Assembly: GCA_900323505.1 (NCBI GenBank)
Contig: OOIN01000043.1
Span: 1,138,501 to 1,202,500 of the forward strand
Source of the DNA: Ustilago trichophora
Lineage: Eukaryota; Basidiomycota; Ustilaginomycetes; Ustilaginales; Ustilaginaceae
DNA length: 64,000 nt
Direction of reading: 5' to 3'
Positions 29,401 through 49,348 of the stretch are shown here, piece by piece (the first letter of the stretch is position 1; each line of letters starts with the position of its first letter). A program made the translations under genes and the position numbers. Below the pieces are notes generated by a model. The model did not search any database, was not told the origin of the DNA, and saw only the letters and a list, made by a program, of their open reading frames with translations.

Positions 29401-32400
29401 TCAACGGACACGGATCTGGCCGCGCCAACGGGGCAGTTTTTGTTTGGATTCGTGGATCCAATCCGCATCATTCTGGCCAAGGGAACCAAGAGCGGATTCC
29501 ACAAGTTCTCGGACCGCGTGTAGAAAGGCGTCTTTGCTTTCTACTCCTTCCACTGCCTTTGACATCGCTTGGCCTAGGTCAGTGCTGCGGGAGACTTTGA
29601 TCAGAGAGAGAAGTGCAAACAGCGATGTCCAAAACAAGGTCGAGTCGAGTGGTTCTGCCAGCAACAGCCTGAATACCGAGGCAAGAACACTGTGCAATGC
29701 TGCAACGAGCTGTGTAGATGGCTGGCTAAAGTGAATCGAAACAACCTTGCAAAAGGCAACGATCGATTCAAGACCAAGCTGCGCGGTTTCGTTTTCGTCC
29801 ATCTTGATGCAGAGCGAGAGGGCTTGTACGGCTTTGTCGAGCAAAGTTGTGCCGTCGGCAGAGGTCGTGTTGGAAGCGACGAGAATCATGCGGCCCGAGA
29901 AAAGGCCAAACATGGAGGATGTGAGTTTGCCTAGTCCCTGTCGCAGCCTGGGCACGCTGAGCGGCTCAGGGGAGTGCAAAAGGCCGAGGACGTGTTCGAA
30001 GCCGACAAGGCAGACGTCGCTCGTCTTGGAGGATTGCAGCTCAGGAGACTGGTCCGAACCGCCATCGTCTACACCGGCACGAGAAGAGCCTGACAGCTCA
30101 GCCAAAAGCTCGATCAGCAGGCAGAGACCCTCATAGGGCACATCGTCCTCCAATGGTGAGCCAGCCTCGGAAGTGAGCAGCAAGTGCGTCTTCTTCTTGC
30201 CGGCACGATTCTCGCCTTGCAAGGCCTGCATCAATTGCCACACAGCCTGGTTGAGGCCCATGACGACGAATGGCTCGGCACCAAAGTCGAGCTCGAGCGA
30301 GACACTGAGCGTATGGAGCAGACGCAGGATGGAGACGGCAATCTCGGATCGCGTATCGTACACACGACAGAGTTGGGAGAAAGCGCCAAAGAACTTGGAG
30401 ATGAAGCCATAAACAATCTCAGCCGAGTTGGGCTGGATCGAGGAAGCGAGACCCTCGAGCATATCGAGCGATGTCTGAACTGCCGAGATGACATCCGAGT
30501 TTTGCGAGATGGCCGCAAAGTTTGGCTGAGAGAGCAGGGCTCCGAAGCGCGACTCGATCGAAGAGGTGATCTGCTTAAAGTAGAATTCGGCCGATCGTTC
30601 TGAGGGCGCGTCCGTGTGTGTGGCACCAGAGTAGATGCAGCTGACGACGGAAGCGATCAGAGAGCCATGCGTGTTGGCCGGGAGGTGGTCAAGACCGGAA
30701 ACGATGCCAGATACGAGCTGCTCCATCTCAGGAAGCTGGAGCAGGCAGATCATGATACCGCTGGATCGTGTGAATGCAGAGAGTACCTGAGCGAGCTGCA
30801 GAAGCACATCCGAGTCCGACATCCAGAGCTGAAGGTTCTCAGACAGGCGCTGAAGCAAGAAAGTCAGCACCTGTCGACCGGCTTGATCGCCAAAGGCACG
30901 CTGGATAGCAGCATTGGTGGCAAAGCCAGATCGCTCATCGATCAACAGGTATGACGACGTCCAGCGGCCAGTGAACCAAAGAAGCGTCTCGGTCACCTGC
31001 GGACTGGTGGCCTCGACGGATGCAGGGCCAAAGGCCGAAAGATGCTGGAAAAGTTGCATACCGAGCTGCATGATGAGAGCCACTGCGGGGTCTTCGGGTT
31101 CGGCACTAGCTGCGATTTCGGTGGGGACCTCCGGCGTCTCGCCGCGCGCGTCATCGGCAAGAACGTGGCCAGCGATCAAGACAAGCCAGTGAATCTGCTC
31201 CCAGGTCTGACCTAGCTCGACATCGGTGAAGTTGGCTTGTCGCTGCGATTTGGCCATGAGCTTGTCGCAGAGAGGCTGTGCGAGCTGCTGCAACGCGCGC
31301 AAGTTGTCAGCTGCCGAGATTCGTGCCAGATTGGCAATGGTGATGAGCTGATCTAAGTAGACATCTCGATCCTTGGCTGCGACCTCTTCGACTTCGGACA
31401 TGTCGTCTTCTCCATTGACGATGGAGGCTGCTTCGAGACGACCGGTAACGTAGGGAGCAAAGACTTGATCTCGGATGCTGCCGGAGACGGTCCTGGCGAG
31501 CACTTGAACGTGTGCATCTTGAGCATGAGCGGCATCGTTCTGTCGTAGTGATGAGGTGAGAGCTTGCCAGCAAGCCAAGAGGACATCGACAGTGTCTTCG
31601 GTCAGGACGGCAAGGTCATCTTCCTCGTCGGTGTCCTTGGGACGATGGAAGGCGAGGCCAAAGATGGCCTTGCCGAGCATTGAGAGGGACGAGACGAAAG
31701 CAAGACTACCCTGAGCGACGGCGTCACCCGACTGAAGAGATGCGGCCAAGATCTGCATTGGAACCACCGAGACGATGATCTGGAAAGCCTGTGCCAAGAA
31801 AAGCATCGAGTTGCCGCGTGCCGAGAGAAGCTGCGAGGGAGAGGCAGCCTCCTCGTCGACCAGCGATTGAAGGGTGGCACAGAGATGTTTTGTGCGTGAG
31901 ACAAGCACAGGAACATGTTGGGGCTTGTGTGCCTGGGGCGTGAAGCTGCAAGTGGACAAGATGCATTGTCGGAGACGATGGACGGAGAAGGAAATGTCTC
32001 GACTAGCCATGCTAGTTGCTTGCAAACGGAGGCCAAAGCGATAGGCCGTGGTGAGGAGCGAGACGACATCATCGGAGAGCAAGACTGGCACGAAAGCATC
32101 CGGAACATGCTGTGGACGAAGCAACTTCTTGGCCTGAGGAGGGGAAGAAGTAGCATTCGGCTCGTCATCTTGATCGACGCCAGTGGCGAATACTGCATCC
32201 TCGTGTTGAGAGCGGGACTGCTGTTGCCATGCGGTAGAAGTGAACGGTTCGAAACGGGTGAAAGTCCAGCCAAGAAGTTTCTCTGTGGCGGATGCAGCCT
32301 GGAAGAAGAGAGTGTGTCGCCAAGAGCCGGTGGTGGAGGAAGTACTGTCGTCCGAGATGGTATTGTAGAGGAGCTGGAAGACAGCTGTCATGAGACCGGC

Positions 32401-33189
32401 GAGGACGTGATTCTGGATGAGCGACTTGCATTGTCGATGCTGCAGCAGATTGAGACCGACGGCCGATCCGGGTACTGCAGGTTTGGACGCAGATTGAGCA
32501 GGTTGCGATCGACTTGATTCGGCCGAAGCGTCAAAGACGTCGTTGGCGGTGGTGAGGATGAATTCATCGACGACAGCACGTACGAGACCGAGGCCTGTGA
32601 CGATTCGTGCCAGCGCAACGGCGGACTGGGTGGCATCGGTGGGCCATGGAGATGGAAGAGTCAAAAGACTGGAGAGTTGCGTGTTGAGGAGACCGACGTG
32701 TGATTTGATGAGGTCGTCCAAAGCTGAGTTTGTGGCGGTCATCTGACCGACATTTTGAGCCAATTCGAGACCGAGAAGACGCTTTTCGACCGCGATGGCT
32801 GTCTGAAAGGCACGAGATCGAAGATACTGTGGCCAGGTAGCGTTTGCATCGGCAGATCGAGACGAGTGTTCGCTGTGAGAGACGCAAAAGTGAAGTAGAA
32901 AGTCACGCAGCAGCGAGAGTGATGCGACGCCCTGACTTGGCTGTTGTGCGGCTAGAGAGGGAAGCACGAAGAGCACCGCATTGAGTGATTGGAAGAGGAC
33001 GAGCGGATCGTGGGAATGTTGCAATGCAAAACAGGCATAGTCGAGAGCGCCGTCGGATTGGCGAAGAGCGAGAAAAGTGGCTTCACCTTTGGCTCTGAGC
33101 TGCGGATCGGGATTGGTGAATTCGGACGAGGCCTGATGAATCGAAGCAAGCGCCTCTTCCAAGTGTCGGTTCGCAGCAACCAGAGACAT
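29401..33189 (-). CDS. XPO4: Exportin-4-like nuclear export receptor
   Basis: A 1262-residue karyopherin-beta (HEAT-repeat) protein. The strongest family sign is a central block at about residues 660-690, IHWLVLIAGHVLADDARGET followed by PEVPTEI, which I recognise as the conserved segment of exportin-4. A further block (WFTGRWTSSYLLIDERSGF) precedes the C-terminal HEAT repeats. The N-terminus resembles an importin-beta N-terminal domain. Exportin-4 moves cargo such as eIF5A and Smad3 out of the nucleus with RanGTP. The human protein is 1151 residues. No introns are apparent. The gene is divergent from the Mei2-like gene. Confidence 0.85.
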   Translation of the reverse strand: MSLVAANRHLEEALASIHQASSEFTNPDPQLRAKGEATFLALRQSDGALDYACFALQHSHDPLVLFQSLNAVLFVLPSLAAQQPSQGVASLSLLRDFLLHFCVSHSEHSSRSADANATWPQYLRSRAFQTAIAVEKRLLGLELAQNVGQMTATNSALDDLIKSHVGLLNTQLSSLLTLPSPWPTDATQSAVALARIVTGLGLVRAVVDEFILTTANDVFDASAESSRSQPAQSASKPAVPGSAVGLNLLQHRQCKSLIQNHVLAGLMTAVFQLLYNTISDDSTSSTTGSWRHTLFFQAASATEKLLGWTFTRFEPFTSTAWQQQSRSQHEDAVFATGVDQDDEPNATSSPPQAKKLLRPQHVPDAFVPVLLSDDVVSLLTTAYRFGLRLQATSMASRDISFSVHRLRQCILSTCSFTPQAHKPQHVPVLVSRTKHLCATLQSLVDEEAASPSQLLSARGNSMLFLAQAFQIIVSVVPMQILAASLQSGDAVAQGSLAFVSSLSMLGKAIFGLAFHRPKDTDEEDDLAVLTEDTVDVLLACWQALTSSLRQNDAAHAQDAHVQVLARTVSGSIRDQVFAPYVTGRLEAASIVNGEDDMSEVEEVAAKDRDVYLDQLITIANLARISAADNLRALQQLAQPLCDKLMAKSQRQANFTDVELGQTWEQIHWLVLIAGHVLADDARGETPEVPTEIAASAEPEDPAVALIMQLGMQLFQHLSAFGPASVEATSPQVTETLLWFTGRWTSSYLLIDERSGFATNAAIQRAFGDQAGRQVLTFLLQRLSENLQLWMSDSDVLLQLAQVLSAFTRSSGIMICLLQLPEMEQLVSGIVSGLDHLPANTHGSLIASVVSCIYSGATHTDAPSERSAEFYFKQITSSIESRFGALLSQPNFAAISQNSDVISAVQTSLDMLEGLASSIQPNSAEIVYGFISKFFGAFSQLCRVYDTRSEIAVSILRLLHTLSVSLELDFGAEPFVVMGLNQAVWQLMQALQGENRAGKKKTHLLLTSEAGSPLEDDVPYEGLCLLIELLAELSGSSRAGVDDGGSDQSPELQSSKTSDVCLVGFEHVLGLLHSPEPLSVPRLRQGLGKLTSSMFGLFSGRMILVASNTTSADGTTLLDKAVQALSLCIKMDENETAQLGLESIVAFCKVVSIHFSQPSTQLVAALHSVLASVFRLLLAEPLDSTLFWTSLFALLSLIKVSRSTDLGQAMSKAVEGVESKDAFLHAVRELVESALGSLGQNDADWIHESKQKLPRWRGQIRVR

Positions 33190-34000
33190 GACGGCTAGCT
33201 CCGATGAGCCGCACTAGCCACCAGTCGTAGTGTGACGTTGGAAAAAATTGGCTCTAGTATCGATCGGCGACTCCGATCCTACAGGTGAATGCTCGAATGT
33301 GACTGAGTAGAATCGTGATGGTGATGGTGATGGTGATAAGGCAAGCAATGGCTTTTCGTTGGTTTGATGACATCGACTTCTTTTGGTTGTCACCAGTTTT
33401 GCGCTATCTTGACAGGCTTGCAGGTGTCAAGTGAGTGTAGGTCCAACGAGAGAGGTCGCCAGTCCCGAAATCCGCAAAAATCGCGAATCAACCAGAAAAG
33501 AAAAAAAGAAAAAGATTTCATGGTGAGATGAAATAAGCGACCAAGCTCAGTAGTTTACTCGGTGTCTTGCTTCCCAATCCTCCACCACCACCACCCAATC
33601 CCGGATTTCCACACTTCATCTCCCACCGTCCTTCCAAAACATCGTGGCAGTCGCTCCATTGTTTTCCACCATCTTCAATCCCGGACTCACGACTCTTGCT
33701 GAGCAAACCATCTGCGCCTGAGACCATCCACAGCGCATCTCTCTCGCTCTTTCAAGACCTCGGTTTTCATTTGCCAAACACGCACTCGAAGCCAAGCACA
33801 AGCCTTTCTGCTCCTCTTTCGATACTCTGAGACTTTCGCGGCTCTCTGAGTTGATTATCTTCTTTTGCTCTCTCGTCGACGAGTGAGCTTTTGAGCCTTT
33901 GAGCTGCCTTTGCCTCTGAGCTCGTTCTGGATCCCTCCTTTGAAGCCTCGCAACGTCACATGCACTCGCAACCTTTTCGGAGATCCTTCTGATTTGAGTC
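33190..34000. promoter_or_regulatory. Divergent promoter between XPO4 and the Mei2-like gene
   Basis: An 811-bp region contains a (GTGATG)n run at about 33317-33337, an A-rich tract near 33497-33512 and pyrimidine-rich leader sequence. No gene is seen. Confidence 0.5.
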
Positions 34001-35968
34001 ATGAACAATCGCCACCATCCCTACGGTGGCTACGATGAGAGGCCCACTCGCGGTGGTCGCGCCGGCGTCAATCCTTCCATGCGCGCTCGACCTCCTCGTC
34101 CCGCCGGCATTAGCCCCCCTCCTTCTGGCTATTCGCCCACTCAAGCAGCTTACAATCCCGCTGCTTCCAACATGAGTGACGCTTCCGACTCTTATCAGCC
34201 TCAGAACGCATACAGTGGTTCCAATGATTTTGCTGGCGGTCCAGATCGTCGCTATCAGATGCCAATGTCCACTGGTCCACAAAGAGGCGGCATGAGCGCA
34301 CGCGGTGGTCTCCATGGCTCGCGGCCCCCTCCGCCTGCTCAAGGCCAAAACTTGAGCTCCGCCCCGACCTATGGATACACACCTGCTTCTTTTGAGAACG
34401 CCCCCTACTCTGCATCTAATCCTTATGACCAATCATCCACAGCTCCTGCTCCCGGTCAACCTTCGTACGCACAATCTCCTCATCAAGCCACCGGATACTC
34501 GCAAGACTACAACCCTGCTGGCGGCCCTCCTCCTCCTCCACGCCCACCTCCGCCCGGCTTTGAATCTCAAGGCTACGCTCCACCTCCCTCTTTCGCTCAG
34601 CCTCATTACCGACCCGCCCCCCCGCAAAACTCTTACGGCCGACCACCTCCCAACGATGGAGGTCCAGGTTTCAGGGGAGGTCGAGGTGGTGGGCGCGGTG
34701 GACGCGGCGGTGGACGTGGGGGCCGCGGAGGAGGCTTCGGAGGTGGCGGTGGCAGAGGCTTTGACGACGACGAAAAGCCTTGTCGTACCCTTTTCGTCCG
34801 CAGCATCCAATTTGAGACGGACTCACAATTTGTCCAGCAGCAATTTGAGCAGTTTGGCCAGATCAAGACCTTTTTCGACATGGTTAACAAACGTGGAATC
34901 GCTTTCATCACCTACTATGACCTTCGATCCGCCCGAGACGCCATGCTCGCTATGAAGGGCGCTCTTTTTGGTGGCCGTCCCATCAACATTCACTACTCAC
35001 TCCCACGTGAGGAGGACAAAGCACAGCGCTGCGATCGTGAAAAGAACCAGGGAACCCTTTTCACCGTGCTTAAAGGAGCTACTCAAGACCTCACCGATGA
35101 GGCAGTACACCAAGTGTTTGGTGAATTTGGTGACGTGAAAAAAGTCCGCGACTACCCTGGACAGAAGAACAGCCGCTTTGTCGAGTACTTTGACAGCCGT
35201 GCGTGTCAGCTTGCACATGACCAGCTCAACGGTCAAACTTATCTGGATGGCCAGTGGGATCTCAAGTTTGCTTGGGATGTCGTCACCGACGAGGATCTTG
35301 AATGGGCCCAGCAACCCCAGCAAGGTAGTGGCCCAGGCTTCCAAGCCGCTCCTCCTGGTAGTCAACCTGGTGGTTGGGGCCGACCCGGTCCTCACCCACA
35401 TTCAGTCTCGGATCGAGCGCCCCTCCCCACTGACTATCCTAGTTACGATGCATCAGGACCACCTGGCGGAGCACCACCAAGCCTTGGTTACGGTCGACCG
35501 CCCATCCCACCCACTGGTGCACCTGTGGACAACGGATGGGGCAGGCGCGCAGGCTCTGGCTCCGGCCCTGCCTCTTCCACCTCGGCCTCAGCACCTGCTC
35601 CCCCTGCAGATGCAGGAGACGCCAACCGTCTCGAACAGGCTCAAAAGGTGCAGGCGCTGCTTGCCTCTCTCGGCGCAGCCTCAAAGCCCCCTCCAGCAGC
35701 TGCATCGTCCACTCCCCCTGCACCCGCTGCCTCGAGCCCACCAGCTCGCAGCCCACCAACCGCACACACATCAGCTGCACCAGGACTTCCTCCCAACATC
35801 GCTGCCCTCCTCCAATCGGCTGCCGGAGCACCCAAACCCACACAACCGCCCAAACCTCAGTCGCCTCCCACTTCTAACGCCTCAGCTACCGGCCAAGAAG
35901 GAGGACAACAATCTGTCCATCAGCTTCTCAGCATGCTCAACCAGAACCGTCCTCCTCGTCCCTCTTAG
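34001..35968 (+). CDS. Mei2-like tandem-RRM RNA-binding protein
   Basis: A 655-residue protein. Residues 1-220 are disordered and Pro/Gln/Ser/Tyr-rich. An RGG box lies at about 224-255. Two adjacent RRMs follow: RRM1 about 260-335 (RTLFVRSIQFETDSQF, RGIAFITYYDLRSARDAM, then INIHYSLP) and RRM2 about 350-430 (QGTLFTVLKGATQDLTDEAV, RFVEYFDSRACQLA). This pair, with its short linker and the IHYSLP strand, is the RRM1-RRM2 arrangement of Mei2-like proteins. The C-terminal RRM3 that defines canonical Mei2 is absent. The tail has an Ala/Pro-rich region and ends with a short helix (QSVHQLLSMLNQNRPP). A role in mRNA binding is supported. A meiotic role is not shown. Confidence 0.78.
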   Translation: MNNRHHPYGGYDERPTRGGRAGVNPSMRARPPRPAGISPPPSGYSPTQAAYNPAASNMSDASDSYQPQNAYSGSNDFAGGPDRRYQMPMSTGPQRGGMSARGGLHGSRPPPPAQGQNLSSAPTYGYTPASFENAPYSASNPYDQSSTAPAPGQPSYAQSPHQATGYSQDYNPAGGPPPPPRPPPPGFESQGYAPPPSFAQPHYRPAPPQNSYGRPPPNDGGPGFRGGRGGGRGGRGGGRGGRGGGFGGGGGRGFDDDEKPCRTLFVRSIQFETDSQFVQQQFEQFGQIKTFFDMVNKRGIAFITYYDLRSARDAMLAMKGALFGGRPINIHYSLPREEDKAQRCDREKNQGTLFTVLKGATQDLTDEAVHQVFGEFGDVKKVRDYPGQKNSRFVEYFDSRACQLAHDQLNGQTYLDGQWDLKFAWDVVTDEDLEWAQQPQQGSGPGFQAAPPGSQPGGWGRPGPHPHSVSDRAPLPTDYPSYDASGPPGGAPPSLGYGRPPIPPTGAPVDNGWGRRAGSGSGPASSTSASAPAPPADAGDANRLEQAQKVQALLASLGAASKPPPAAASSTPPAPAASSPPARSPPTAHTSAAPGLPPNIAALLQSAAGAPKPTQPPKPQSPPTSNASATGQEGGQQSVHQLLSMLNQNRPPRPS

Positions 35969-36283
35969 GGAAGGTTTCCGTCAATTGTAATTTTTACGCC
36001 CTCTTTTTCACCACTCGCTCACGGAAGAGCATCTTCTTTTTCGCACCGTACCCGGATGTAATCAAGTATGTTAGGAGACGAATCAACTTAGAATTACGCA
36101 TGTACGAATGCATGAATAGCGTATGATCGACTCGACAAGATGGACTAGCGGATGTGTGGAGTGTGAGTGTGAGTGTGTGTGAGACTGAGGACGTTCTGGT
36201 GCGGATGTGTGATGGTGCCTACGTTGCTGGCGACTGAATCTTGTGCGAGACACGTTCGTGTCAGATTAGCTGGTCTGAGGCAG
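35969..36283. other. Convergent 3' intergenic region
   Basis: 315 bp lie between the Mei2-like gene and the first secreted-protein copy. It contains a GT-rich run near 36156-36182. No gene is seen. Confidence 0.6.
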
Positions 36284-36843
36284 CTAAGCATGGCAGACGA
36301 TCCGTTGATTAGCATAGTCGGCGGTGCACTTTCCATCAGGGCTTTTCCATGCAATATTGCCGAAGTCAATGCCTGTGTAGTAGTAAAACACATTATCACC
36401 TTTCATGTTGAAGCAGATGGGACTGATTTGTGGTTATAGAAAGGCCTCAGTCAGCAGCCCGATCGGACAAAGTAGCTACTGAGAGAGTTTCAAAGGGCAC
36501 TTACGTTTGACCATGACACTCATACGTGCCACTAAAGGCAAAACGCTCGACGGAAAAGTTGGTCTTAAAGTCGTCAGGTGCGAGAACGGAATTGATGCCG
36601 TCGTAACAGATACCGACGCTGTAGCCTGGGTTCAGCTTAAGAGGACTCAGCGACGCGGGCTTCGTAACACTCTTTCTTGCTCTGCTTGGGCTTTTTGTGG
36701 AACAAGGACTAAGAATAAAGGCGGAAAGTTAGAAACAAGAGTCGCAGTAGCTGGGCCGAGTATGGTCAGCTTTGAATGGATGTACTCACGGCTTGGACGG
36801 AAGACAGCATCAGAAGGGTAGTAAGAGCGGCAGTGATCTTCAT
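36284..36843 (-). pseudogene. Secreted six-cysteine protein family, copy A (frameshifted)
   Basis: Three exons are inferred from the family pattern: 36843-36790 (54 nt, signal peptide starting MKITAALTTLLML), 36708-36505 and 36422-36284. The introns are GT-AG (GTGAGT...TTAG; GTAAGT...CAG). All six family cysteines are present: ECYE, ICYD, YECHG, ICFNMKG, KCTADY and IVCHA before the stop. The summed exon length is 397 nt, not a multiple of three. The frame entering exon 2 meets a stop directly before the KLNPGYSV block (near 36644), and the rest of the protein continues in another frame. This is a small indel relative to copy B. It is either a true pseudogene or an assembly error. The splice sites and downstream frame are otherwise intact, so the lesion may be recent. 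Confidence 0.75.
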
Positions 36844-37349
36844 TTTGAAGGTATTACCGGGAGAGATCTGAGCAGTTGATTTGGAGGTGAGGAGAGGAAG
36901 GGTAAAGAGGATGCCCCAAATCTCGATCCGTCTTCAAAGGCGTGAAGCACCGTCGCAGTGCTTCATCTGAACGGCGATGGGCGGAGTCACTCCCACCAAT
37001 CCCCACTATATCAGCGGTTGTATGCAGATTATCTTTGTGTGGCAACTTCTCAAACGACCACAACCGACAGCAGAGTTGTTTTGCCACAGGCCTGCTTGCT
37101 GTTCAGTCCAAATCTTGTGGGCTACCAGCTGACACACAGTGCTTAGGAAAAAAAAAACTTGCTTGATTTGCTTTCAGATCTCCCGTCGGGTCCGGCAACC
37201 TTCATCTCGGCAAACTGATACGGCTGGGAGGTGGGTAAGAGGGTACTGCAGTGCATGTCGTCCCTCCCAGATATGCTTTTGAAAAGTTCTCTATTCCCGC
37301 TGCAGTTCGTACGAACCTTCGAATCTCACTTGTTGCGGCATTAAGGCAT
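36844..37349. promoter_or_regulatory. Upstream region of copy A
   Basis: It contains a TATA-like GATATAG on the minus strand near 37006-37012, a hairpin-capable GAAGCAC...GTGCTTC pair at 36944-36964, and the motif TTTCAGATCTCCCG (plus strand, 37172-37185), which recurs upstream of copy B. No gene is seen. Confidence 0.5.
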
Positions 37350-37894
37350 TTAGGGATGGCAGGTGATGCTGTTGTTGTCTTTGGTGCACTTTTGGTCAGG
37401 GGTGCTGAAGGCTACGTGCAAGAAGCCGTTGTGGTAGAAGTGTACCCTGTTATCGCCCTTCATGTTGAAACACATAACACTAGATCAGCAAAGTAGAAAG
37501 TCAGCGAGTGACCGGTGAAAGTAGTAGCAGAGAAAAAGGCTACTTACTCAGCACCATGACACTCGTACGTGCCACCAAAGGCAAAGCGCTCGACGGAAAA
37601 GTTGGTGATGAAAGCATCAGCCACGTTGACGGAAGAGTATCCAGTGTGACAGATTAGGGCGCTGTAGCCCGGATTGAGCTTTCCCGAGTCTTCCATGCGG
37701 GCCCCTATGCACTCTTCCATGGTTTGCTTGTGCTTTCAAGTGTTTTTCCAGCCACGATCATCAAAGATAAGCATCGTGGGTCAGTTCACCCTTGCCTGAT
37801 AGAGTGTGTCAATTTTTGGCTTAACGTAAACAGAACTTACAGCTTGGACGTAAGCCAGCATCAGAAGGGTAGCAAAGGCGGCGATGAACTTCAT
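37350..37894 (-). CDS. Secreted six-cysteine protein family, copy B
   Basis: Exons are 37894-37841 (54 nt; signal peptide MKFIAAFATLLMLAYVQA), 37726-37548 (or from 37732, both in frame) and 37479-37350. Spliced length is 120 or 122 residues. The mature protein has six cysteines in the family spacing: EECIGA, LICHTG, YECHG, MCFNMKGDN, KCTKD and ITCHP. It is closest to copy A (shared NFSVERFAF-GTYECHG block). Intron 1 is phase 0 directly after the signal exon. Intron 2 is phase 2 just before the CFNMKG motif. A TATA-like ACATAAAAGG lies about 85 bp upstream. Function is unknown. Secretion and tandem duplication suggest an effector-type role, by inference only. Confidence 0.78.
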
Positions 37895-38777
37895 GACGAA
37901 ATCTGTCGAAGAAAGATGCCTGAAATGGTTCAATGATGAGGCGAGGAGGAGTCAATGCACTAAAAAGCTGCTCCTTTTATGTTTGAATCGTTACCGGTCC
38001 TCTTGAAGAGCGTTCGATATGAATGCACCTGCTATTTTCAGGCAAGGTCTGGACCAAGCTGGCCGTGGTATCTCCCACGCACCGATATCTACTCTGTCAG
38101 CTTTTGGTACAACCGGGGCATCTTCACGGCAACCTCGGCAACGCTGGTGATAGATGCCTGAAAACTTCCGGTCAGGGGCTCGCTTGTTGTTCAGCTGTTG
38201 AGCCTCGTGGTTGGAAGTGATCTGGCCTGACGTTCCTGTCGAATAAAGTGCTCGATTTTGCTTTCAGATCTCCCGCCGGTCGAGCATCAACTCGATAGTC
38301 TGATGCAGGGTGGGAGGAAAGCATCCCATGTCTCTCATTGATCCGGCGCGCTTTAAGGCTACCTCTTTCCCCACCTTTTCTCCTGCCTTGTCCGCACGAG
38401 ACCATTGATCACACTTGGAAAGGGAAAACTGATCCTTCCCGACCAGTTGCCTTTGGCTTTGAAAAGCGGGCTGATATCTGGAGCTCAGAGTCGGAAGTTC
38501 CATCAAAAGACGCTTTCACTTGGACAGCCGTGTAAAGATATCCAAAGCGATCACACCTCAGACTACTTCCCTGTGTACTGTACAGTGTGTATCACGAGAC
38601 ATCAGCCTCACGCATTCTTGCCTGCACACGTGGCTTTTGAAAACTACGATCCAAAGAAGGGCTGAGAGAAGGACATGGAGTGACAGGATAGGAGTGAGAT
38701 GTTGCAGTATTCTGCGTTGAAGAAGTCGACCAAGCAGCTTGACAGCCAATTCGGTAGGCTGAGCTTGCATCTGATGC
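37895..38777. other. Spacer between copies B and C
   Basis: It carries copy B's promoter, including the TTTCAGATCTCCCG motif at 38262-38275, and the 3' region of copy C. Open frames (for example 38405-38665 +) have no domains. A TACTGTACAG stack lies at 38576-38585. Confidence 0.5.
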
Positions 38778-39394
38778 CTAATTCAAGCAGCTTACTTGAA
38801 CGTTTTGTTTGTCGTACAGACACGTGTGGTTATATGTGTGTATTATTGCTAGGTTGTCCGAGCCAGCGTCCTTGTAGCCTTTCCATTCGTTCTTTCCCAT
38901 CAACCATAAGCAATCCATCCTTATTGAGTTTGGATATAGAATAGAAGAGCATATCACATCAGATCCTAGCCAGCTGGCTGAGCTAAAGTGCCGGAAACAG
39001 ACGAGGAGAAGAGGCAGAAGGCAGAGCGGGATACTTACCCTATCTTATCGCACTTTTTGTAGCCGACATACTTGTAAGCTCCTTCTGTCTTGTTTGTGGT
39101 GAGGCTGTTGGGATCCGAAGCAGAGCTACTGCCATGGTAGCAGATGGACGCGCTGATGTCTATAAACTTAGCCTTGGCCTCGTCCGCGGTTTCCTGGGCT
39201 TTCTGCCGGATGCATTCGGCTCTGGCTTGTTTACGTTTCTCCAATGTAGGGAGCTGAAGGCTCGCATAGAAGCAGCCATCGCTTGGAACTCTGTCAGTCC
39301 ATTGTTCCAGTAGCACAATAGAACGCTTTGTCCGACTTACCGTATAGGCTTCACCGAGTAGGGTGAAGATCGAGAGGAGCTGAAGGACCTGCAT
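38778..39394 (-). CDS. Secreted six-cysteine protein family, copy C
   Basis: Exons are 39394-39341 (signal peptide MQVLQLLSIFTLLGEAYT), 39253-39039 and 38919-38778, giving 136 residues. Intron 1 (phase 0) would otherwise be read through in frame, which hides the gene structure. The acceptor TTCAG before CTCCCT is supported by alignment of the following LPTLEKRKQARAEC with copy D. The six cysteines are AECIRQ, SICYHG, KKCDK, DCLWLMGKN, HTCLYD and SCLN. The exon 3 block GYKDAGSDN is shared with copy D. A TATA-like GCATAAATTGCC lies about 80 bp upstream. Function is unknown; it is a secreted candidate effector. Confidence 0.78.
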
Positions 39395-39724
39395 GGTGAT
39401 CTAGTACTGAAAGGGGGGCTTGCTCGTTGTAGAGATGGGATGTTTTGGGAAGAAGGAAGGTGGGAAGGGGCGGCAATTTATGCTTGGATTCGATCGGTCA
39501 ATGAGATTAGGATCTTCCTCCTATCCCCCACTCTGAACACGTCGGTCCTGACCTCGATTGACCGGTCCGAATGGCTGCTGTGCTTTGAAGGGTTTCCCCA
39601 CCAAGCCTTTACGTACAGTCACATTTCATCAATTTCAGATCTCATGGCGGAACGCGAACCATCTCAGTCAATAGCTGAGGTCCGGTCGAAGAAATGCACA
39701 TCCTATTGCACGACTCCGTGCCGT
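39395..39724. promoter_or_regulatory. Upstream region of copy C
   Basis: It contains the TATA-like element (39473-39484, minus strand) and the motif TTTCAGATCTC at 39633-39643, shared with the upstream regions of copies A and B. Confidence 0.45.
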
Positions 39725-40306
39725 CTAAGTGCATGTGACGCTAATCGTGTCGCGGTGATAGACGCAGTTGCTGCCAATGTACATGGCAATGTTGTCAGAG
39801 CCAGCATCTCCGTATCCCGACCACGCGTTCAAGCCTTTCATCCAGAAACAATCCAGTCTGATCCATTAAGAGAGACAGAGATAGTCAAGAGGGACACAGG
39901 TCAGCAATCAAACTGGCTGAGAAGTATTCGTGTATAAGAGGGAAGGATACGAGACTTACCCGACACCATGGCATTTATAGTAGCCGGAATAGCCATAATG
40001 ACCATCCCTCTTGTCGGTGGTCGAGTCTCCAGCTCTCACGGCAGAATTATCGCCATGGTAGCAAAGGGCGACGCTGTAGTCTATAGGTGCCTTTTCCGCG
40101 GTAAGAGAAGCGTAGTACCGGAGGCATTCGGCTCTGCTACCTCTTTTCTGCAAAGCAGGGACCTAATCAATCGAAATTGCGGCAATGATCGCACGGAGAT
40201 TTGTCAGCTTGATGTCGTAGAGCAGACTGAATCGAGGAAGAATCTGACTTACAGCGTGAGCGGCGCCGAGAAGGACGCAGAGGGGGATGGCTTTGAAGAT
40301 CTGCAT
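39725..40306 (-). CDS. Secreted six-cysteine protein family, copy D
   Basis: Exons are 40306-40253 (signal peptide MQIFKAIPLCVLLGAAHA), 40162-39960 and 39857-39725, giving 129 residues. A dibasic KR near the start of the mature protein (VPALQKRGS) could be a Kex2 site. The mature six cysteines are AECLRYY, LCYHGDN, YKCHGVG, DCFWMKG, NCVYH and VTCT, the last just before the stop. Block YYGY/SGYYKCHG matches copy C's VGYKKC. The intron phases are identical to the other copies. A TATA box in the 12-mer GCATATAAGGGC lies about 80 bp upstream, identical to that of copy E. Secretion is well supported; function is unknown. Confidence 0.82.
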
Positions 40307-40383
40307 GTTGGAGGCGAGAGGGGTAGCTTTGAGGCAGGATCTGAGGCTTGATGTCAAGGTGTATGGAGAAGACGGCTACCAAG

Positions 40384-40395
40384 GCCCTTATATGC
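40384..40395 (-). promoter_or_regulatory. TATA box of copy D (GCATATAAGGGC)
   Basis: The minus-strand 12-mer is identical to that upstream of copy E, at a comparable distance from the ATG. Confidence 0.6.
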
Positions 40396-40685
40396 CTATT
40401 GAGCCATCAACCAGACACACACATCGCCCCGAAAGAATGAGACAGTGATGGAGCACCGCTTGAAGGCATAATCGCAGACCTTGCTCAGGGGAATCTTAAT
40501 CTCATTTCTCCAAGGATGGTTGGCACAGCTATTTCGTCCTGTCTCGTCATGGAAAGCCATGAGAGCAGTTGCTTTGATCCATAGCCTTTGCAGCCGCATC
40601 ACTTCATCAGCTTTGTGTATGTTGGTGCTTGCTGCGCCCTGACACAGCCACATATGAAGAGGACAATGGGTCGAAGCTCATCCTA

Positions 40686-40975
40686 GTTGAAATATGTGAG
40701 CCACGCGCCAACTCAGGACTTGTCGTTTGTTGGTGTAACGGTTCCCCTGAACTGGTTAAGAGTCTGAATGCTCCCGCGATACGCAGGGACCGCATGTTCG
40801 ACCTCCCTTGAGCTGTGCTCTGGTTCACACGATTTCACGTTATTCGACAGCCACTCACGCCGAATTGGTTCATGGCTTGAGGGGGACAGTTGAAACATGC
40901 AAGCCACGCACCAACTCATGACTTGTCGTTTTTTTATTTACTTTTTATTCTTTGGTGTAACGGCGCCCTTTAACT
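40686..40975 (+). repeat. Imperfect direct repeat pair
   Basis: Copy 1 at about 40686-40758 and copy 2 at about 40889-40975 share GTTGAAA-ATG, AGCCACGC-CCAACTCA-GACTTGTCGTTT and TGGTGTAACG. Copy 2 carries a T/A-rich insertion in the middle. The copies are separated by about 130 bp. Confidence 0.75.
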
Positions 40976-41515
40976 ATGCTCAGCCGCGAAATGAAGCCAG
41001 CAATATCAGACAAAGAAGACGATAGAGTGAAACTCAGCTTCACATCGATGTCGACAGAGGCAGAGCAAGCTGCCGAAGCTTGGGGTTGAAATTTTCATTG
41101 GGAGCCTTAGTGTTCAGATCGCTCCACAGGAGATATGCGTCTCGCCTGAAATTGACGTGGGCTTCTTTCAAGACAAAGAGCGTATCAACGTTACAGATAA
41201 GCCTTTGCCGCGCCGTCATACCTCATGACTCAACAGCGGCAGAGAGGGAGAGAGTCATTCATCCAATAATGCAACATGCAAAGCTCCCAACAGGCGTTCA
41301 CACAAAATCTCGAACCTTTCTTGCCTGTCTTCTTGTTCATTCAAACGGATATCGCGCAAGACAAGGCTTGATGAAGCTGGAAACTGCTATTTGGAACTAC
41401 GCGTATGTAACAAAGATACTAGGGAGACCTATGTAGCTGTGTCGGAGGAAGCATGGCGGTTCAAATTCAGAGCACGTAAAAGCAACGCAAAGACTGCAGA
41501 CCGTCTGAGCTAGTC

Positions 41516-42099
41516 TCAGGGCTTTTCTGTGCACTGGACCTGGACTACTTTAGCGTCTCTGGAAGCTTGGCTTTTGTGGCATAGGTCCGGCTTGTTGTAA
41601 TGAACGACGAAGTGGTCGGGCTCGCCGCCTGCGTAGCCTACCCACGTATTCGTCTTGCCCAGACCGAAACAATGAATCCTGTCGAACATGGTGCCAGCAA
41701 TGGAGGTTGTCAATATCTTCAGCAACAAATTACATGAGCACGAATTGGATACAAAAAGCTAGCTATACTTACTGAGCTCCACCACATTGAACTTCGAACA
41801 GGAAAGTGTAGAACCCGTCGTCTTTGTTCTCAACATGGTCCCTGCCAGAGTAGCAGATCGTGACAGAATAATGCTCCATTACGTCTTTCCATCCCTTACT
41901 GAATTCAAGATTGTCGGCAAGGCACTGCGTCTTGGACGGGCCCTGGCTTTGAAGGACCGCAACTCCGTTTTGCTAATCTCTCCCAAAAACAACACGTGTG
42001 AGCATGCTGCAATCGCGTCAGAACAAGATCGAGAGATGTACTTACAGCATAGATTGCACCCAGCAGGAGGAAGACGGGGACTGCTTTGAGGACCTGCAT
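41516..42099 (-). CDS. Secreted six-cysteine protein family, copy E
   Basis: Exons are 42099-42046 (signal peptide MQVLKAVPVFLLLGAIYA), 41972-41773 and 41678-41516, giving 138 residues. The six cysteines are TQCLAD, TICYSGRD, VQCGGA, HCFGLGKTN, LCHKS and QCTEKP before the stop. It is the most diverged copy but keeps the YSVTICYSG block, the phase-0 and phase-2 introns, and the WVGYAGGEPD segment corresponding to GYGDAGSDN of copy D. A TATA box in GCATATAAGGGC lies about 105 bp upstream. Function is unknown; it is a secreted candidate effector. Confidence 0.8.
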
Positions 42100-42981
42100 G
42101 ATAGAGGAAGGTGTCTCGTGGGCTTGTCGAGCCTATAATACTGAATCCTCCAGAGGAAAAAAGTGATGGGAGGAGCGGAGGGCCAACCTGGCCTGAAATC
42201 CTCGCCCTTATATGCTTCTTTGCGACTCAGATTTCTTCGCAGGGCTGACCGCGGGCTCTCGAGCAAAGGACCGATATCGAGATTGCATCACAGCAGTGGC
42301 TCAGCCCGCTTGAAGGACGAGCCCACAAGGAGGCAGTGCACAATAGCGGAGCCACAAGGAGGAACTGAACAATGTGATCAAATGAGCTCAAAGTGCGATC
42401 AGATCCCCGCTGGGCGGGTCCGAACATTGCCCAAGATGAAGCTCGCGAACGTTCACCGCTGAAGCTACATGCCAAATTGCACAGAGGCATCAGTCACATG
42501 GCTACCAGACCCATCAGAATAATGCTTGAGCTTGAGTGAGCCCTCGGCCCACCGGAAAGGGGTCATGACGAGAGGAGAGATTGGAGGCAGGAAGACACTG
42601 AAGGTGCTAACTTACTGTGCAGCTCAGGGACGGAGCAGAAGCAAAAAGAAAAATAAGATTGTGTTGATGTGGGCGTGGTGACGTGGCGTACTTTAATCGC
42701 TCTACCGTTTGGATTGCATTCCTCTCTGGCCGGATGCTTCATACCGAGCTGACTAGGCGTTGCGGTTCAATGACACACAGTGAGAAAAGACAAAAGCTTG
42801 AGTTTGGTGCTGAACGCAAGAGCAGAATGATCAAGACGTGATCCAAGTTAGAGAGGCACGGTTGAGGAAGGCATTCCAATTACAAAGTCGAGAAAATAAC
42901 GAAGGGAACGCTGTGCAGGAAAGAATGCTATGCAAAACCAGCAAAACAACTACGGAACAATCCGGGTCCCCGGGGACTTCG
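42100..42981. other. Spacer between copy E and the sulfatase gene
   Basis: It holds the copy E promoter and the 3' region of the sulfatase gene. No additional coding region with support is seen. Confidence 0.5.
42204..42215 (-). promoter_or_regulatory. TATA box of copy E (GCATATAAGGGC)
   Basis: The minus-strand 12-mer lies about 105 bp upstream of the start codon at 42099 and is identical to the copy D element. Confidence 0.6.
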
Positions 42982-45392
<2,411 letters not shown>

Positions 45393-46808
45393 ATGTCAGA
45401 GCGTGATGCACTGTCTCCAGAGATTCGCACACGGCTGATGATGCAAGAGGGCTACGATGACCAGCTCGTCTGGACTCAAGAGGAAGAGAACAGGATTCGG
45501 CGACGAACCGACTTGCTCGCGCTCATTCCGGCCATGGTCGTCTTTATAACCCTTTCTCTCGACAGGAGCAATGTTGCCAACGCTCTCACCGACAACTTTC
45601 TGCACGATCTCGGCATGAATCAAAACCAGCTCAACAATGCTATCACCATCTTCAACCTCGGAATCGTCATTTTTGAAATCCCTTGGAACATTCTTGCCAA
45701 GAGGTATGGTCCTAATCGCTTCCTGCCCATCACTGTCATATTGTGGGGTGCTGTCACCGTTGGTCAGGCTTGGATCACCAACCATCATCAGCTCTATGTC
45801 ACCAGAGCCCTGGTAGGTACCTTTGAGGCAGGCTTCATCCCTGGCTTCGCCTACTATCTAGGCCGCTTCTATCGTCGGGACGAACTGGCGGCTCGCTACG
45901 CCTTGTTCTGGAGTGCCAACAACGTCGCCAGCTGCATTGCCGGAGTCGCCTCATTGGGCATCCTTAAGCTGCGTGGAACGGCTGGCCTTGCAGGATGGTC
46001 CTGGCTGTTCATCATCGAAGGTATTTTCACCATGGTTGCAGGCATCTTTGCTCTCCTTTGGTTCCCTGATGGGACCGTCGTTCCAAAAGGGTCAAAAATT
46101 CGTCGTGCATGGTACACTGAGCGTCAAGGAAGGATCATGATGACGCGCGTGCTTGTCGACGATCCTACCAAGTGCAACGAAGTACAAAGGGGCAAGATCA
46201 CACTTGCTGACATCGTAGACTCGGTCTCAGACTGGCGTATGCTCTTGATCATCTTGTCGGCTTTTTCTGGCATGATTGCAACCACACCTGTAGCAACCTA
46301 TGTACCTTTTATTATCAAGCAACTCGGCTTTCGCGGATACAGTGCCAACGGACTGGCCGTTCCAGGCTACGTTGCGGGAATTGCCCTCAGCCTCACAGCA
46401 GGAGCATGCGTGTCCAAGTGGCGAAATCACGGATATTGGGTGGCAGCATACATGCTGGGAGGCATCTGCGGCTTCCTTTGGATCTCGCTGCCGCCTCATG
46501 ACACCTTGCGCTCTGTATTGCTGGTCGGAGCTCTGGTTATGACTGCGTTCAGTGCCTCGTATGCTGGCGTCATGGGCTCTTGGATCAGCGGCAGCGTGCA
46601 CTCGCGCCAGCGTCCCATCGTACTTGCTCTATTGGTCATGGCCAACAATGCCGCGGGCTTGGTGGGCGCACAGGTGCTTCGCGCCAGCGATGCACCCCGC
46701 TACAAACGTGGTTTCCTTGCGCTTGTCGGCACCTCGGCCTTCGGTGCCTTGACTGCTTTAGCTGCTGCATTTGCGCTTCGGAGACGTAACGGCCCCTTGC
46801 ACCAATGA
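45393..46808 (+). CDS. MFS transporter, anion:cation symporter (Dal5-like) family
   Basis: A 471-residue membrane transporter. The cytosolic N-terminus (EENRIRRRTDLLALIPAMVV) and the first membrane segment ending LDRSNVANA are hallmarks of the fungal ACS family (allantoate, vitamin, sulfonate and related anion permeases). About twelve hydrophobic segments are present. The MFS loop motif appears as NILAKRYGPNRFLP, and RALVGTFEAGFIPGFAYYLG is typical for the family. Because it is divergent from an arylsulfatase, uptake of a sulfate ester or sulfonate is the most economical inference. Substrate cannot be read from sequence. The upstream frame is closed by a TGA, so the ATG at 45393 is the first available without splicing. 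An upstream exon from 45259 is an alternative. Confidence 0.88.
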   Translation: MSERDALSPEIRTRLMMQEGYDDQLVWTQEEENRIRRRTDLLALIPAMVVFITLSLDRSNVANALTDNFLHDLGMNQNQLNNAITIFNLGIVIFEIPWNILAKRYGPNRFLPITVILWGAVTVGQAWITNHHQLYVTRALVGTFEAGFIPGFAYYLGRFYRRDELAARYALFWSANNVASCIAGVASLGILKLRGTAGLAGWSWLFIIEGIFTMVAGIFALLWFPDGTVVPKGSKIRRAWYTERQGRIMMTRVLVDDPTKCNEVQRGKITLADIVDSVSDWRMLLIILSAFSGMIATTPVATYVPFIIKQLGFRGYSANGLAVPGYVAGIALSLTAGACVSKWRNHGYWVAAYMLGGICGFLWISLPPHDTLRSVLLVGALVMTAFSASYAGVMGSWISGSVHSRQRPIVLALLVMANNAAGLVGAQVLRASDAPRYKRGFLALVGTSAFGALTALAAAFALRRRNGPLHQ

Positions 46809-46877
46809 TTCTGCTTTCGATTCTCCGATTAAATTAGCGAATAGAGCCAGTATGATTAGCGATTGAAGGATTTGCAT
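46758..46877 (-). pseudogene. Possible signal-exon relic of a sixth six-cysteine family member
   Basis: A 39-codon minus-strand frame starts MQILQSLIILALFANLIGES, resembling the family signal exons (MQIFKAIPL..., MQVLKAVPV...). A TATA-like GCATAAAAGAGGG lies at 46961-46973, about 85 bp upstream, as in the real copies. No GT donor follows the 18th codon and no exon 2 or 3 is found; the frame runs antisense into the MFS gene end. Resemblance could be chance, since signal peptides are low-information. Confidence 0.3.
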
Positions 46878-47520
46878 GATAAAGTGAGTTGACGACGTCG
46901 ACGAGGGATGTTCTCAGGAGCTATCGTTGCGGAAAAAAGTACCAGAAAGCTCACATGGTCCCCTCTTTTATGCCGATTTCAATTTCACAATACTGTTTCT
47001 CATCTGAAGTCTGAAGGACTGTATGCACACACAGTCATGCCGTAGCAGGCTAGCTTGGGCTCATCCTGCGGACAGACCTCTTGAAGAGGAGCGAAACGAA
47101 GTCAAGTTAGGCTTCTTAGAGCGACGTACCGAAACCCAGAGGCGAATTAGGAGGTGGGCCTACAACGACGACATCATGTCCCGATCGGCCCTCTTCACAA
47201 ACACGAGATTGACTTTGAGCTACCTTTTTCCAGCTCGTCAGCCTGTTGGTGGGCCGCACCCCTAGCATTTCATCAAAGCTCAGGCAACCGACACTGCAAA
47301 ATCAGCAGCGGTGGGCTTTTGGTGGCATCCGACCCACCGATTCGCTCTCAAAGCTTGATGAAGTCTGACCGGCTGCCGTGGCTCTCTCTTGGTCTTATAT
47401 AAAGGCGAGAGAGAACGAGCCCCCCCTTTTTTTCCCTCCCTCGTTTCTCGCCTTCTGCGACCTTTCTTGAGGCTTTTCGAAACTCCCGCTGAACAAGTTT
47501 CGGCAAAACGATCATTTACG
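46809..47520. other. Intergenic region before the repetitive secreted protein gene
   Basis: It contains the possible signal-exon relic near 46.87 kb and the promoter of the following gene. Other short frames have no support. Confidence 0.5.
47396..47403 (+). promoter_or_regulatory. TATA box of the repetitive secreted protein gene
   Basis: TATATAAA lies 118 bp upstream of the ATG at 47521, followed by a pyrimidine-rich leader. Confidence 0.7.
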
Positions 47521-49348
47521 ATGAGAGGCATGCTTTCCATCAACATGGCCAAGCTGCTCACACTGCTGCTGGTCATCATACCTGTCGTGCTCGCAATCGA
47601 GGTGGAAGGCTCGCAGCCTATGATGCCGCACCACCCACGCATGGTTCGGTAAGTTTCACCTTTTCTCTTTCGCCTTCTCTCATCTTCTGGCCTAGCTGAC
47701 TAACCCTACTCTACCCCTCTCTGTGAAATACTTTGCTCTGGTGGCATCATGCAGGCGCCGCATCGAAGCACGAAGCTTCATGTCGTGGCTGACGCACATT
47801 TCGTCTAAGGCTTCTGACTGGATGTTTGGCCCTGTTCCCGTCCCAGCGCGCGATGAGAGCCACATTCCCAAGGCAGTCACGGGCCCAGTGGGCGTGATGC
47901 CCAAGATGCCGTACCCTTACGCTACCGGTATGATACCTCGTCTTGCAAGTGAAACGCTGGAGGGCAACGGTCTTGTCGGCGGATATGTGTGTCTGCATGT
48001 TACGCCTCCTGATGAGGCTCATCCCACCAGTATCGGTGCTGGTGGTGCTGGTGGTGCTGGTGGTCAGCAGCCCGGTGGTACTGGTACTGGTGCTGGTGCT
48101 GGTGCTGGTGCTGGTGCTGGTGCTGGTGGTGACGTTGCTGGCATGGGCGGTGGCATGAACGGTGGCATGAACGGTGGCGGTGGTAGTGGAGGAGGTATGG
48201 GCGGCGGTGGTATGGGCGGCGGTGGTATGGGCGGCGGTGGTATGGGCGGCGGTGGTATGGGCGGCGGTGGTATGGGCGGCGGTGGTATGGGTGGCGGTGG
48301 TATGGGCGGCGGTGGTATGGGAGGAGGTGGTGGAGGCATGGGAGGTGGCGGTGGGATGTACGGAAGTGGCGGTGGTATGAACGGCGGTGGTGGTATGAAC
48401 GGTGGTAATGGTATGAACGGCGGTAATGGTATGAACGGTGGTAATGGTATGAACGGCGGTAATGGTATGAACGGCGGTAATGGTATGAACGGCGGTAATG
48501 GTATGAACGGCGGTAATGGTATGAACGGCGGTGGTGGTATGAACGGCAGAGGAGGTGTTTCCTACGGTGGCGGTGGTGGAGGAGGTGGTATGGGTGGCGG
48601 TGGTATGGGAGAAGGCGGTGGAGGCATGGGAGGTGGCGGTGGGATGTACAGTGGTGGTATGGGAGGTGGTGGCGGCGAAGATATGTATGGTAATGGTATG
48701 GGACGAGGAGGAGGTGGTGGCGGCGAAAGCATGTACGGCGATGGTATGGGAAGAGGAGGAGGAGGAGGAGGAGGTGGTGGTGGTGGTGGAGGAATGGGCA
48801 GAGGTGGAGGCTCTTACGGTGGTGCCTACAGCCAGCAAGAAGCCGGTGCTGGTATGGGCGGTGGCGATGGCGATGGCATCAATGATGATGAAGGCCAGCA
48901 AGGTGACAGCGTCCCTCCCGGCTACATCCGCTACCAAGGTCGACTAATGACGATTGACCAATACACTCGTGCTATTGCCGGTGGCGGTGGTTCCGGTGGC
49001 AGCGGTCTCTCGCGCCGGGACGTCCTCGAGTCAGACTCCTTGTTGAACAAGCGCCAATCCGGCGATGCTACGGACAATTCCGCCAAGAAGAAGCCCCCCA
49101 AGGTTCTCATGTGCATCAACGGCGACCCCAACGTGCCCCCCATCAAGTTCAATACCATGACCGGTTTGCGCATCCGCGACGACTCGACCCGTGTTGACGG
49201 TGTGGTCGAGATTACCAACTTGCCTAGCTACGAAAAGTCCTGGATGCCTTTCCTCCCCACGGACCAAATGTGGGCCGAGCAGCAAACCTTGATGTTGGCC
49301 CAGGAGGAGATGATCGAGAAGAACATGACCACTGCTCCCCCTCCGTAG
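47521..49348 (+). CDS. Repetitive Gly/Asn/Met-rich secreted protein, two exons
   Basis: Exons are 47521-47648 and 47755-49348 (GTAAGT...GCAG), giving 573 residues. The signal peptide lies in residues about 9-25 (MAKLLTLLLVIIPVVLA). A non-repetitive segment (to about 115) is followed by two tandem repeat blocks: about eight GMGGG-type pentads (15-nt units, about 48197-48320) and about nine GMNGGN hexads (18-nt units, about 48374-48545). More irregular Gly-rich sequence follows. A dibasic KR near LLNKRQSGD could be a Kex2 cleavage site. The final roughly 90 residues are ordinary sequence (PKVLMCINGDPNVPP ... WMPFLPTDQMWAEQQ), conserved-looking but unrecognised. Few cysteines. A cell-surface, wall-associated or matrix role resembling other repetitive smut secreted proteins is an inference. 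Confidence 0.78.
48197..48545 (+). repeat. Coding minisatellites (15-nt and 18-nt units)
   Basis: The 15-nt units GGTATGGGCGGCGGT and then 18-nt units GGTATGAACGGCGGTAAT are nearly identical at DNA level. This points to recent slippage or unequal exchange. Copy number is likely variable between strains. Confidence 0.9.

What the first reader, a model, noticed from the sequence alone, without database searches (positions are those of the whole stretch)
36284..42099. Five-member tandem cluster of small secreted six-cysteine proteins with one conserved three-exon design
Splicing by eye gives five minus-strand copies (A-E). Every copy has a 54-nt first exon coding exactly an 18-residue signal segment, a phase-0 intron, an exon with three cysteines including a YS(V/A)-x-ICY-like block, a phase-2 intron, then an exon opening with x-CF-x-(M/L)-x-G and ending close to a final cysteine. 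Sequence identity is low but structure and spacing are kept, which means old duplication with fast divergence. The genes are hidden because no single open frame covers them. Such clusters in smuts often encode host-induced effectors. The five-gene mig2 locus and Mig1 of Ustilago maydis have a similar organisation, but I cannot align them from memory.
Basis: partly seen in the sequence, partly recalled or inferred. Interest (0 to 1): 0.85.

Follow-up and report, generated by a model that had tools for sequence, protein, structure and literature searches.

The report
Mig1-like secreted protein cluster in smut
A grass smut fungus carries five neighbouring, fast-changing copies of a small secreted protein of the kind that related smuts make while growing in their host plant; four copies look intact, one looks broken, and the kind is already known.

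Summary
Five minus-strand copies (A-E, 42099-36284) each begin with a 54-nt exon coding an 18-residue signal-like segment followed by a GTRAGT donor. A-D have six cysteines, three on each side of a phase-2 intron. Held-out profiles, shuffles and profile-profile comparison show real homology. Copy E does not fit: its exon-2 frame is interrupted.

The genes are not hidden. The window matches Ustilago trichophora, and all five copies have deposited models, two named "Mig1 protein" in UniRef. Four of the five models have other exon borders. The family is Pfam DUF7888 or next to it; only C passes the cut-off. It recurs in two further tandem clusters and four single loci of the same genome, and in Moesziomyces.

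AlphaFold gives B and D the same element order (one helix, seven strands), without a convincing match among solved structures. Three related members lacking Cys1 also lack Cys3, which suggests an optional Cys1-Cys3 disulfide on a four-cysteine core; published Mig1 relatives also keep four cysteines.

Best reading: a Mig1-type, probably host-induced effector family, a new member of a known kind. Induction was not tested, and no direct comparison with U. maydis Mig1 or Mig2 was possible.

The parts
42046..42099 (-). copy A exon 1 (18-residue signal-like segment)
41773..41972 (-). copy A exon 2 (Cys1-3); the deposited model P0003 begins this exon 9 residues later
41516..41678 (-). copy A exon 3 (Cys4-6, stop)
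40253..40306 (-). copy B exon 1
39960..40162 (-). copy B exon 2 (KR site, Cys1-3)
   Evidence: deposited P0002 agrees in full
39725..39857 (-). copy B exon 3 (Cys4-6, stop)
   Evidence: DUF7888 match below cut-off
39341..39394 (-). copy C exon 1
39039..39253 (-). copy C exon 2 (KR site, Cys1-3)
38778..38919 (-). copy C exon 3 (Cys4-6, stop); deposited P0001 keeps part of intron 2
37841..37894 (-). copy D exon 1
37548..37732 (-). copy D exon 2 (Cys1-3); acceptor uncertain, deposited P0004 begins 7 residues later
37350..37479 (-). copy D exon 3 (Cys4-6, stop)
36790..36843 (-). copy E exon 1
36505..36708 (-). copy E exon 2, reading frame interrupted
   Evidence: deposited P0009 leaves a stretch out
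36284..36422 (-). copy E exon 3 region (Cys4-6, stop)

Best explanation
The locus is a tandem array of Mig1-type (DUF7888-like) small secreted proteins of the smut Ustilago trichophora: four intact genes (A-D) and one interrupted copy (E). Shown by sequence: shared ancestry, a signal-like first exon, a phase-2 intron ahead of Cys4, six cysteines, and synonymous change exceeding amino-acid change where it could be measured. Supported by modelling: one helix plus seven strands. Inferred: the signal segment is removed near the exon 1/2 border; in B and C a Kex2-type protease trims a short propeptide at Lys-Arg; the domain is locked by three disulfides (Cys1-Cys3 optional, the other two among Cys2, 4, 5, 6) and released during growth in the grass host. 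There its changing surface binds host extracellular or cell-surface targets while the disulfide frame tolerates rapid change. Duplication and divergence create variants, and some copies decay (E).
For: Homology: held-out profiles, shuffles, hhalign of D+E 98.0% and of A 98.4% against an alignment of B, C, P0005, P0006 and P0008. Family: C passes DUF7888 (33.7 bits, cut-off 27) and P0010 from another cluster passes (48.3); UniRef name 'Mig1 protein' for A and E. Two more tandem clusters and four single loci in the same genome. Architecture: phase-2 intron in 9 of 10 other loci read. Cysteines: Cys2, 4, 5, 6 in 16 of 16 members tabulated; Cys1 and Cys3 both present in 13 and both absent in 3 (positions assigned by eye). 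Constraint: dN/dS 0.40 for D/E, 0.25 and 0.31 for two C11/C10 gene pairs. Fold: B mean pLDDT 82, block means 90-96 over residues 31-129 except 74 at 101-110; D mean pLDDT 82; same order of elements. Published parallel: 13 U. maydis Mig1-cluster proteins with four strongly conserved cysteines, identity 0.6-30%, all 13 expressed on infection (PMC12503489, passages).
Against: No expression data. No hit of the three protein searches is named as U. maydis Mig1 (at E <= 0.01, at E <= 1; the source of P0005 is unnamed), so the link to Mig1 rests on database names, the cysteine pattern and published descriptions. A, B, D and E miss the DUF7888 cut-off. Exon 3 of A and D is not significant in the held-out test. 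Between D and E, intron 2 (0.62) is about as alike as exon 3 (0.64). The three members without Cys1 and Cys3 are close relatives, so this is one event, not three. A and D have no dibasic site before Cys1. B and D were modelled with overlapping alignments, so their agreement is not independent; the five D models range from 73 to 82 in mean pLDDT. No solved structural relative suggests a function. Deleting the mig genes in U. maydis is reported not to impair pathogenic development (PMC6988420, passages), so a role in virulence cannot be assumed.
Confidence: 0.74

Rival explanations
1. The proteins are secreted but act on competing microbes (small killer-toxin-like or antimicrobial proteins), not on the plant.
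For: Small, cysteine-rich, signal-like start; a dibasic site ahead of the first cysteine in 11 of 16 members tabulated, as known for killer toxins (recalled). The relatives in Moesziomyces are in a genus often met as yeasts (recalled).
Against: No convincing sequence or fold match to a solved structure or viral protein model, though that is weak evidence. The published parallels are plant-induced genes.
Confidence: 0.13
2. The array is a decaying remnant: one copy is broken and the others may no longer be expressed or secreted.
For: E is interrupted; deposited models of A, C, D, E differ from the family-based borders; no second copy of the locus was found in the genome.
Against: A-D are open with all six cysteines; dN/dS for D/E is 0.40 over 99 codons, and below 1 in each of three pieces (0.66, 0.47, 0.18).
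Confidence: 0.08
3. A DUF7888 lineage that is not orthologous to Mig1: the name Mig1 was passed on loosely and the shared cysteine pattern arose separately.
For: No hit named U. maydis Mig1 in three searches; how the database names were assigned is not known; A and D have no DUF7888 match.
Against: Two of five copies carry the Mig1 name; the four-cysteine core agrees in number with the published Mig1 cluster; PMC5897528 reports Mig1 family members in all smut genomes it compared, U. trichophora among them (passages).
Confidence: 0.15

Closest known systems
Mig1 family of Ustilago maydis (structural cluster 30 of PMC12503489; UMAG_03223)
   Same: Small secreted proteins, very low identity with a kept cysteine frame, members in tandem; UniRef names A and E Mig1 protein.
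   Different: Six cysteines here (published alignment: four strongly conserved). No direct alignment made here. U. maydis has three mig1-related genes clustered on chromosome 8 (PMC4081819).
mig1-related gene families of Sporisorium reilianum and U. hordei (PMC4081819)
   Same: Lineage-specific expansions: eight clustered genes in S. reilianum, 19 dispersed genes in U. hordei.
   Different: Here three tandem clusters plus four single loci in one assembly of about double size.
Pfam DUF7888 (PF25411)
   Same: C and P0010 pass its cut-off of 27; B (26.4) and deposited E (23.8) fall below.
   Different: A and D give no match.
Moesziomyces antarcticus proteins P0006-P0008, and P0005 (unnamed source)
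   Same: 36-48% identical to B in the alignments shown, with Cys2-Cys6 in place.
   Different: Deposited P0007 and P0008 lack the Cys1 region.
mig2 cluster of U. maydis
   Same: Five genes in one cluster (PMC6988420).
   Different: No sequence link tested; the count of five may be coincidence.

Membership tests
Mig1 family (U. maydis type) | small protein with N-terminal signal segment | tested here: met
   18-residue hydrophobic exon 1 in 5 of 5 copies; no signal-peptide predictor was available
Mig1 family (U. maydis type) | clustered tandem genes | tested here: met
   five copies in 5.8 kb
Mig1 family (U. maydis type) | four strongly conserved cysteines forming two disulfides | tested here: inconclusive
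   Cys2, 4, 5, 6 in 16 of 16 members tabulated, but not aligned to U. maydis Mig1 and bonds not measured
Mig1 family (U. maydis type) | sequence or structural similarity to UMAG_03223 | tested here: inconclusive
   no hit so named in three protein searches; no Mig1 sequence or structure at hand
Mig1 family (U. maydis type) | induction in the host plant | not testable with these tools
   no transcript data
DUF7888 (PF25411) | score at or above the curated cut-off of 27 bits, copy C | tested here: met
   33.7 bits on the deposited model P0001
DUF7888 (PF25411) | score at or above the curated cut-off, copies A, B, D, E | tested here: not met
   B 26.4, deposited E 23.8, A and D no match; they are homologues of a member, not members by cut-off
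Mig2 family | sequence similarity to Mig2 proteins | not tested
   no Mig2 sequence was retrieved

The most novel reading that the evidence does not exclude
The Mig1/DUF7888 family is an effector fold without a solved relative, built on a four-cysteine core to which an optional helix-pinning Cys1-Cys3 disulfide is added. In this fungus, whose assembly holds two diverged genome copies, the family spreads by tandem duplication and also through an RNA intermediate, and the window array is kept on one genome copy only.
Probability: 0.3. Interest if true: 0.45.

Novelty: new member of a known kind. Interest (0 to 1): 0.3.

Why it matters
It adds a clear, exon-resolved cluster to a family known to me from published work mainly on U. 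maydis, S. reilianum and U. hordei, and shows that four of its five deposited gene models have other or doubtful borders. The paired absence of Cys1 and Cys3 gives a directly testable disulfide assignment. The fairly confident model without a solved relative makes B or C a reasonable target for a first structure of the family.

Tried and rejected

dN/dS script: it stopped with an error at the third C11/C10 gene pair, for which there is no result. In one search I tabulated 16 members: A-D (E left out as interrupted), 10 of 13 other loci of this genome with exon-3 matches at E <= 0.03 (three left out because I had not set their exon borders; one of them, C10:565.1k, shows no clean exon 2; a fourteenth match at E 0.046 was not counted), and 2 of 4 proteins from outside this genome (P0007 and P0008 left out as their deposited models lack the N-terminal part). 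One tabulated member, C10:567.5k, has an extra cysteine in exon 3.
Full report
What is there. Read on the minus strand, the region 42099-36284 holds five units A-E in the same direction. Each begins ATG and runs 54 nt to a GTRAGT donor (GTAAGT in A-D, GTGAGT in E). Counting ATG + open 54 nt + GTRAGT over both strands of the 64 kb gives seven cases, five of them A-E; the other lengths tried (multiples of three, 45-75 nt) give 0-2 hydrophobic cases each. Exon 2 of A-D is 200, 203, 215 and 185 nt, all ending in phase 2; exon 3 carries Cys4-6 and the stop. E has the same kind of exon 1 and an exon-3 region with three cysteines, but its exon 2 contains stops and continues in another frame. I treat it as an interrupted copy or an assembly error and have not mended it.

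Is it more than chance. Profiles built from three copies and run against 1727 six-frame peptides find the fourth: exon 2 at E = 1.6e-3, 1e-16, 1.7e-15 and 3.3e-6 for A, B, C, D; exon 3 at 0.47, 7e-11, 2e-12 and 0.7. Exon 3 of A and D is thus not significant on its own there, and one unrelated peptide outscores that of D. Against a profile that also holds relatives, no shuffle of 1000, plain or with cysteines fixed, reaches exon 2 of A or D or exon 3 of D; 2 of 1000 plain and 0 of 1000 cysteine-fixed shuffles reach exon 3 of A. Profile-profile comparison with an alignment of B, C, P0005, P0006 and P0008 gives 98.0% probability for D+E and 98.4% for A. Between D and E, nucleotide identity is 0.83, 0.78 and 0.64 in the exon pieces against 0.49 and 0.62 in the introns, so exon 3 and intron 2 hardly differ by that measure; dN/dS is 0.40 over 99 codons counted piece by piece (0.66, 0.47, 0.18; the third has near-saturated dS). 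The direct repeats found between D and E lie mostly in exons.

Where it comes from. Protein search returns deposited proteins of Ustilago trichophora: B with all borders as read here (P0002), A as P0003 (UTRI_02986), C as P0001, D as P0004 (UTRI_02983) and E as P0009 (UTRI_02982); UniRef calls A and E "Mig1 protein". So the genes are already predicted. Borders differ: the models of A and D start exon 2 nine and seven residues later, C keeps part of intron 2 as a 21-residue insert, and E leaves out a stretch including Cys1. P0010-P0012 lie on contigs whose lengths equal C11, C20 and C10 of the held genome, which ties it to U. trichophora. For the window's contig the lengths differ: 1,202,500 in the held genome, 1,222,527 in the protein database.

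The family. Pfam DUF7888 matches C above the cut-off, B and deposited E below it, A and D not. In the same genome DUF7888 gives 20 exon-level matches at E <= 10, 10 of them above the cut-off on their own. They fall into the window array, two further arrays (C11 about 335-343 kb, C10 about 565-571 kb) and single loci on C16, C4, C3 and C20. Exon profiles give 13 loci outside the window with exon-3 matches at E <= 0.03 in the eight stretches fetched, which had been chosen from those DUF7888 matches. Of 10 of these read in detail, 9 have a phase-2 intron ahead of Cys4 and 4 have the intron after the signal segment (exon 1 of 57 nt); six read straight through. The three-exon design is therefore one of two arrangements; the second intron is the more constant one.

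Cysteines and processing. Over 16 members tabulated, Cys2, 4, 5 and 6 are always present; Cys1 and Cys3 are both present in 13 and both absent in 3 (C16, C4, C3, which are closely related and not independent) (positions assigned by eye). I infer a Cys1-Cys3 bond added to a four-cysteine core. The published U. maydis Mig1 cluster keeps four cysteines in two bonds (PMC12503489, passages and abstract). A KR or RR pair lies before the first cysteine in 11 of 16, including B and C but not A or D; trimming by a Kex2-type protease is inferred from this.

Fold. AlphaFold for B (9 sequences): mean pLDDT 82.3, pTM 0.71, with block means of 90-96 over residues 31-129 except 74 at 101-110; helix 28-42, then seven strands. 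D: mean pLDDT 82.1 (five models 73.1-82.1), pTM 0.73; a helix 3-30 that runs together with the signal segment, then seven strands in the same order. The two alignments overlap, so this shows compatibility, not independent proof. No solved structure matches convincingly; VIA-align looked only at Foldseek's own list, so a missed relative is possible.

What it probably does. The published picture of mig1-related genes is of secreted, fast-diverging proteins: three clustered on U. maydis chromosome 8, eight clustered in S. reilianum, 19 dispersed in U. hordei, and the review calls mig1 an avirulence effector (PMC4081819, passages and section 4). Mig1-related genes of S. scitamineum lie in an island of genes expressed particularly in the plant (PMC4466345, passages). 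mig1 is very strongly expressed in the plant, yet deleting the mig genes is reported not to impair pathogenic development (PMC6988420, passages). I therefore commit to host-phase secreted proteins whose frame is held by disulfides and whose surface changes quickly; the target is unknown and a virulence role is unproven.

Genome setting. The held assembly is 38.8 Mb; another strain of the species has 20.7 Mb (PMC8951962, passages). The C10/C11 and C3/C4 stretches fetched are collinear at 72-90% identity and one gene is labelled UTRI_03104 and UTRI_03104_B, so two diverged genome copies seem to be present. For the window I found one copy only: two flanking DNA stretches, most of the array, an exportin-like gene, the sulfatase and an adaptor subunit each returned only themselves or remote relatives (27-28% identity), apart from the D/E similarity inside the array. 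Whether the second copy is lost or merely absent from the assembly cannot be told.

Verdict. A real, well-defined cluster of a known kind. Interest is moderate to low; the most useful new points are the exon picture, the interrupted copy, the paired cysteines and the unmatched fold.

Noticed in passing
L031 3202-3753 (C16) versus L028 2325-2735 and 2809-2949 (C4): A family member on C16 is 99.3% identical to the exons of the C4 member but lacks its intron exactly, with unrelated flanks; no poly(A) tract and no shared word over 6 bases was seen in the short flanks compared. It looks like a recent processed copy.
   Followed up: partly
L024-L027 (C11 332-348 kb, C10 561-577 kb): Two collinear arrays of the same family, 72-90% identical in aligned pieces and in opposite orientation, apparently the same locus on two diverged genome copies.
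   Followed up: partly
window 29401-33189, 33000-36000, 42900-46900, 50048-51703: These stretches were found only once (apart from remote relatives) in a genome of about double size, unlike the C10/C11 and C3/C4 loci.
   Followed up: partly
window 42208-42213, 40388-40393, 39477-39482, 37976-37981: TATA-like words upstream: ATATAA at -114 (A) and -87 (B), CATAAA at -88 (C) and -87 (D), none of the three words tried in E.
   Followed up: no
window 40685-40975: Two short direct repeats (47 nt at 87%, 36 nt at 75%) between A and B, outside the exons.
   Followed up: no
window 15213-15788: A 191-residue frame with a signal-like start and no Pfam match at E <= 0.001.
   Followed up: no
window 61960-62772: A 270-residue frame resembling a LINE-type endonuclease by eye (motif recalled); no Pfam match at E <= 0.001.
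   Followed up: no
window 47723-49348: A 541-residue frame with long glycine/methionine-rich repeats.
   Followed up: no
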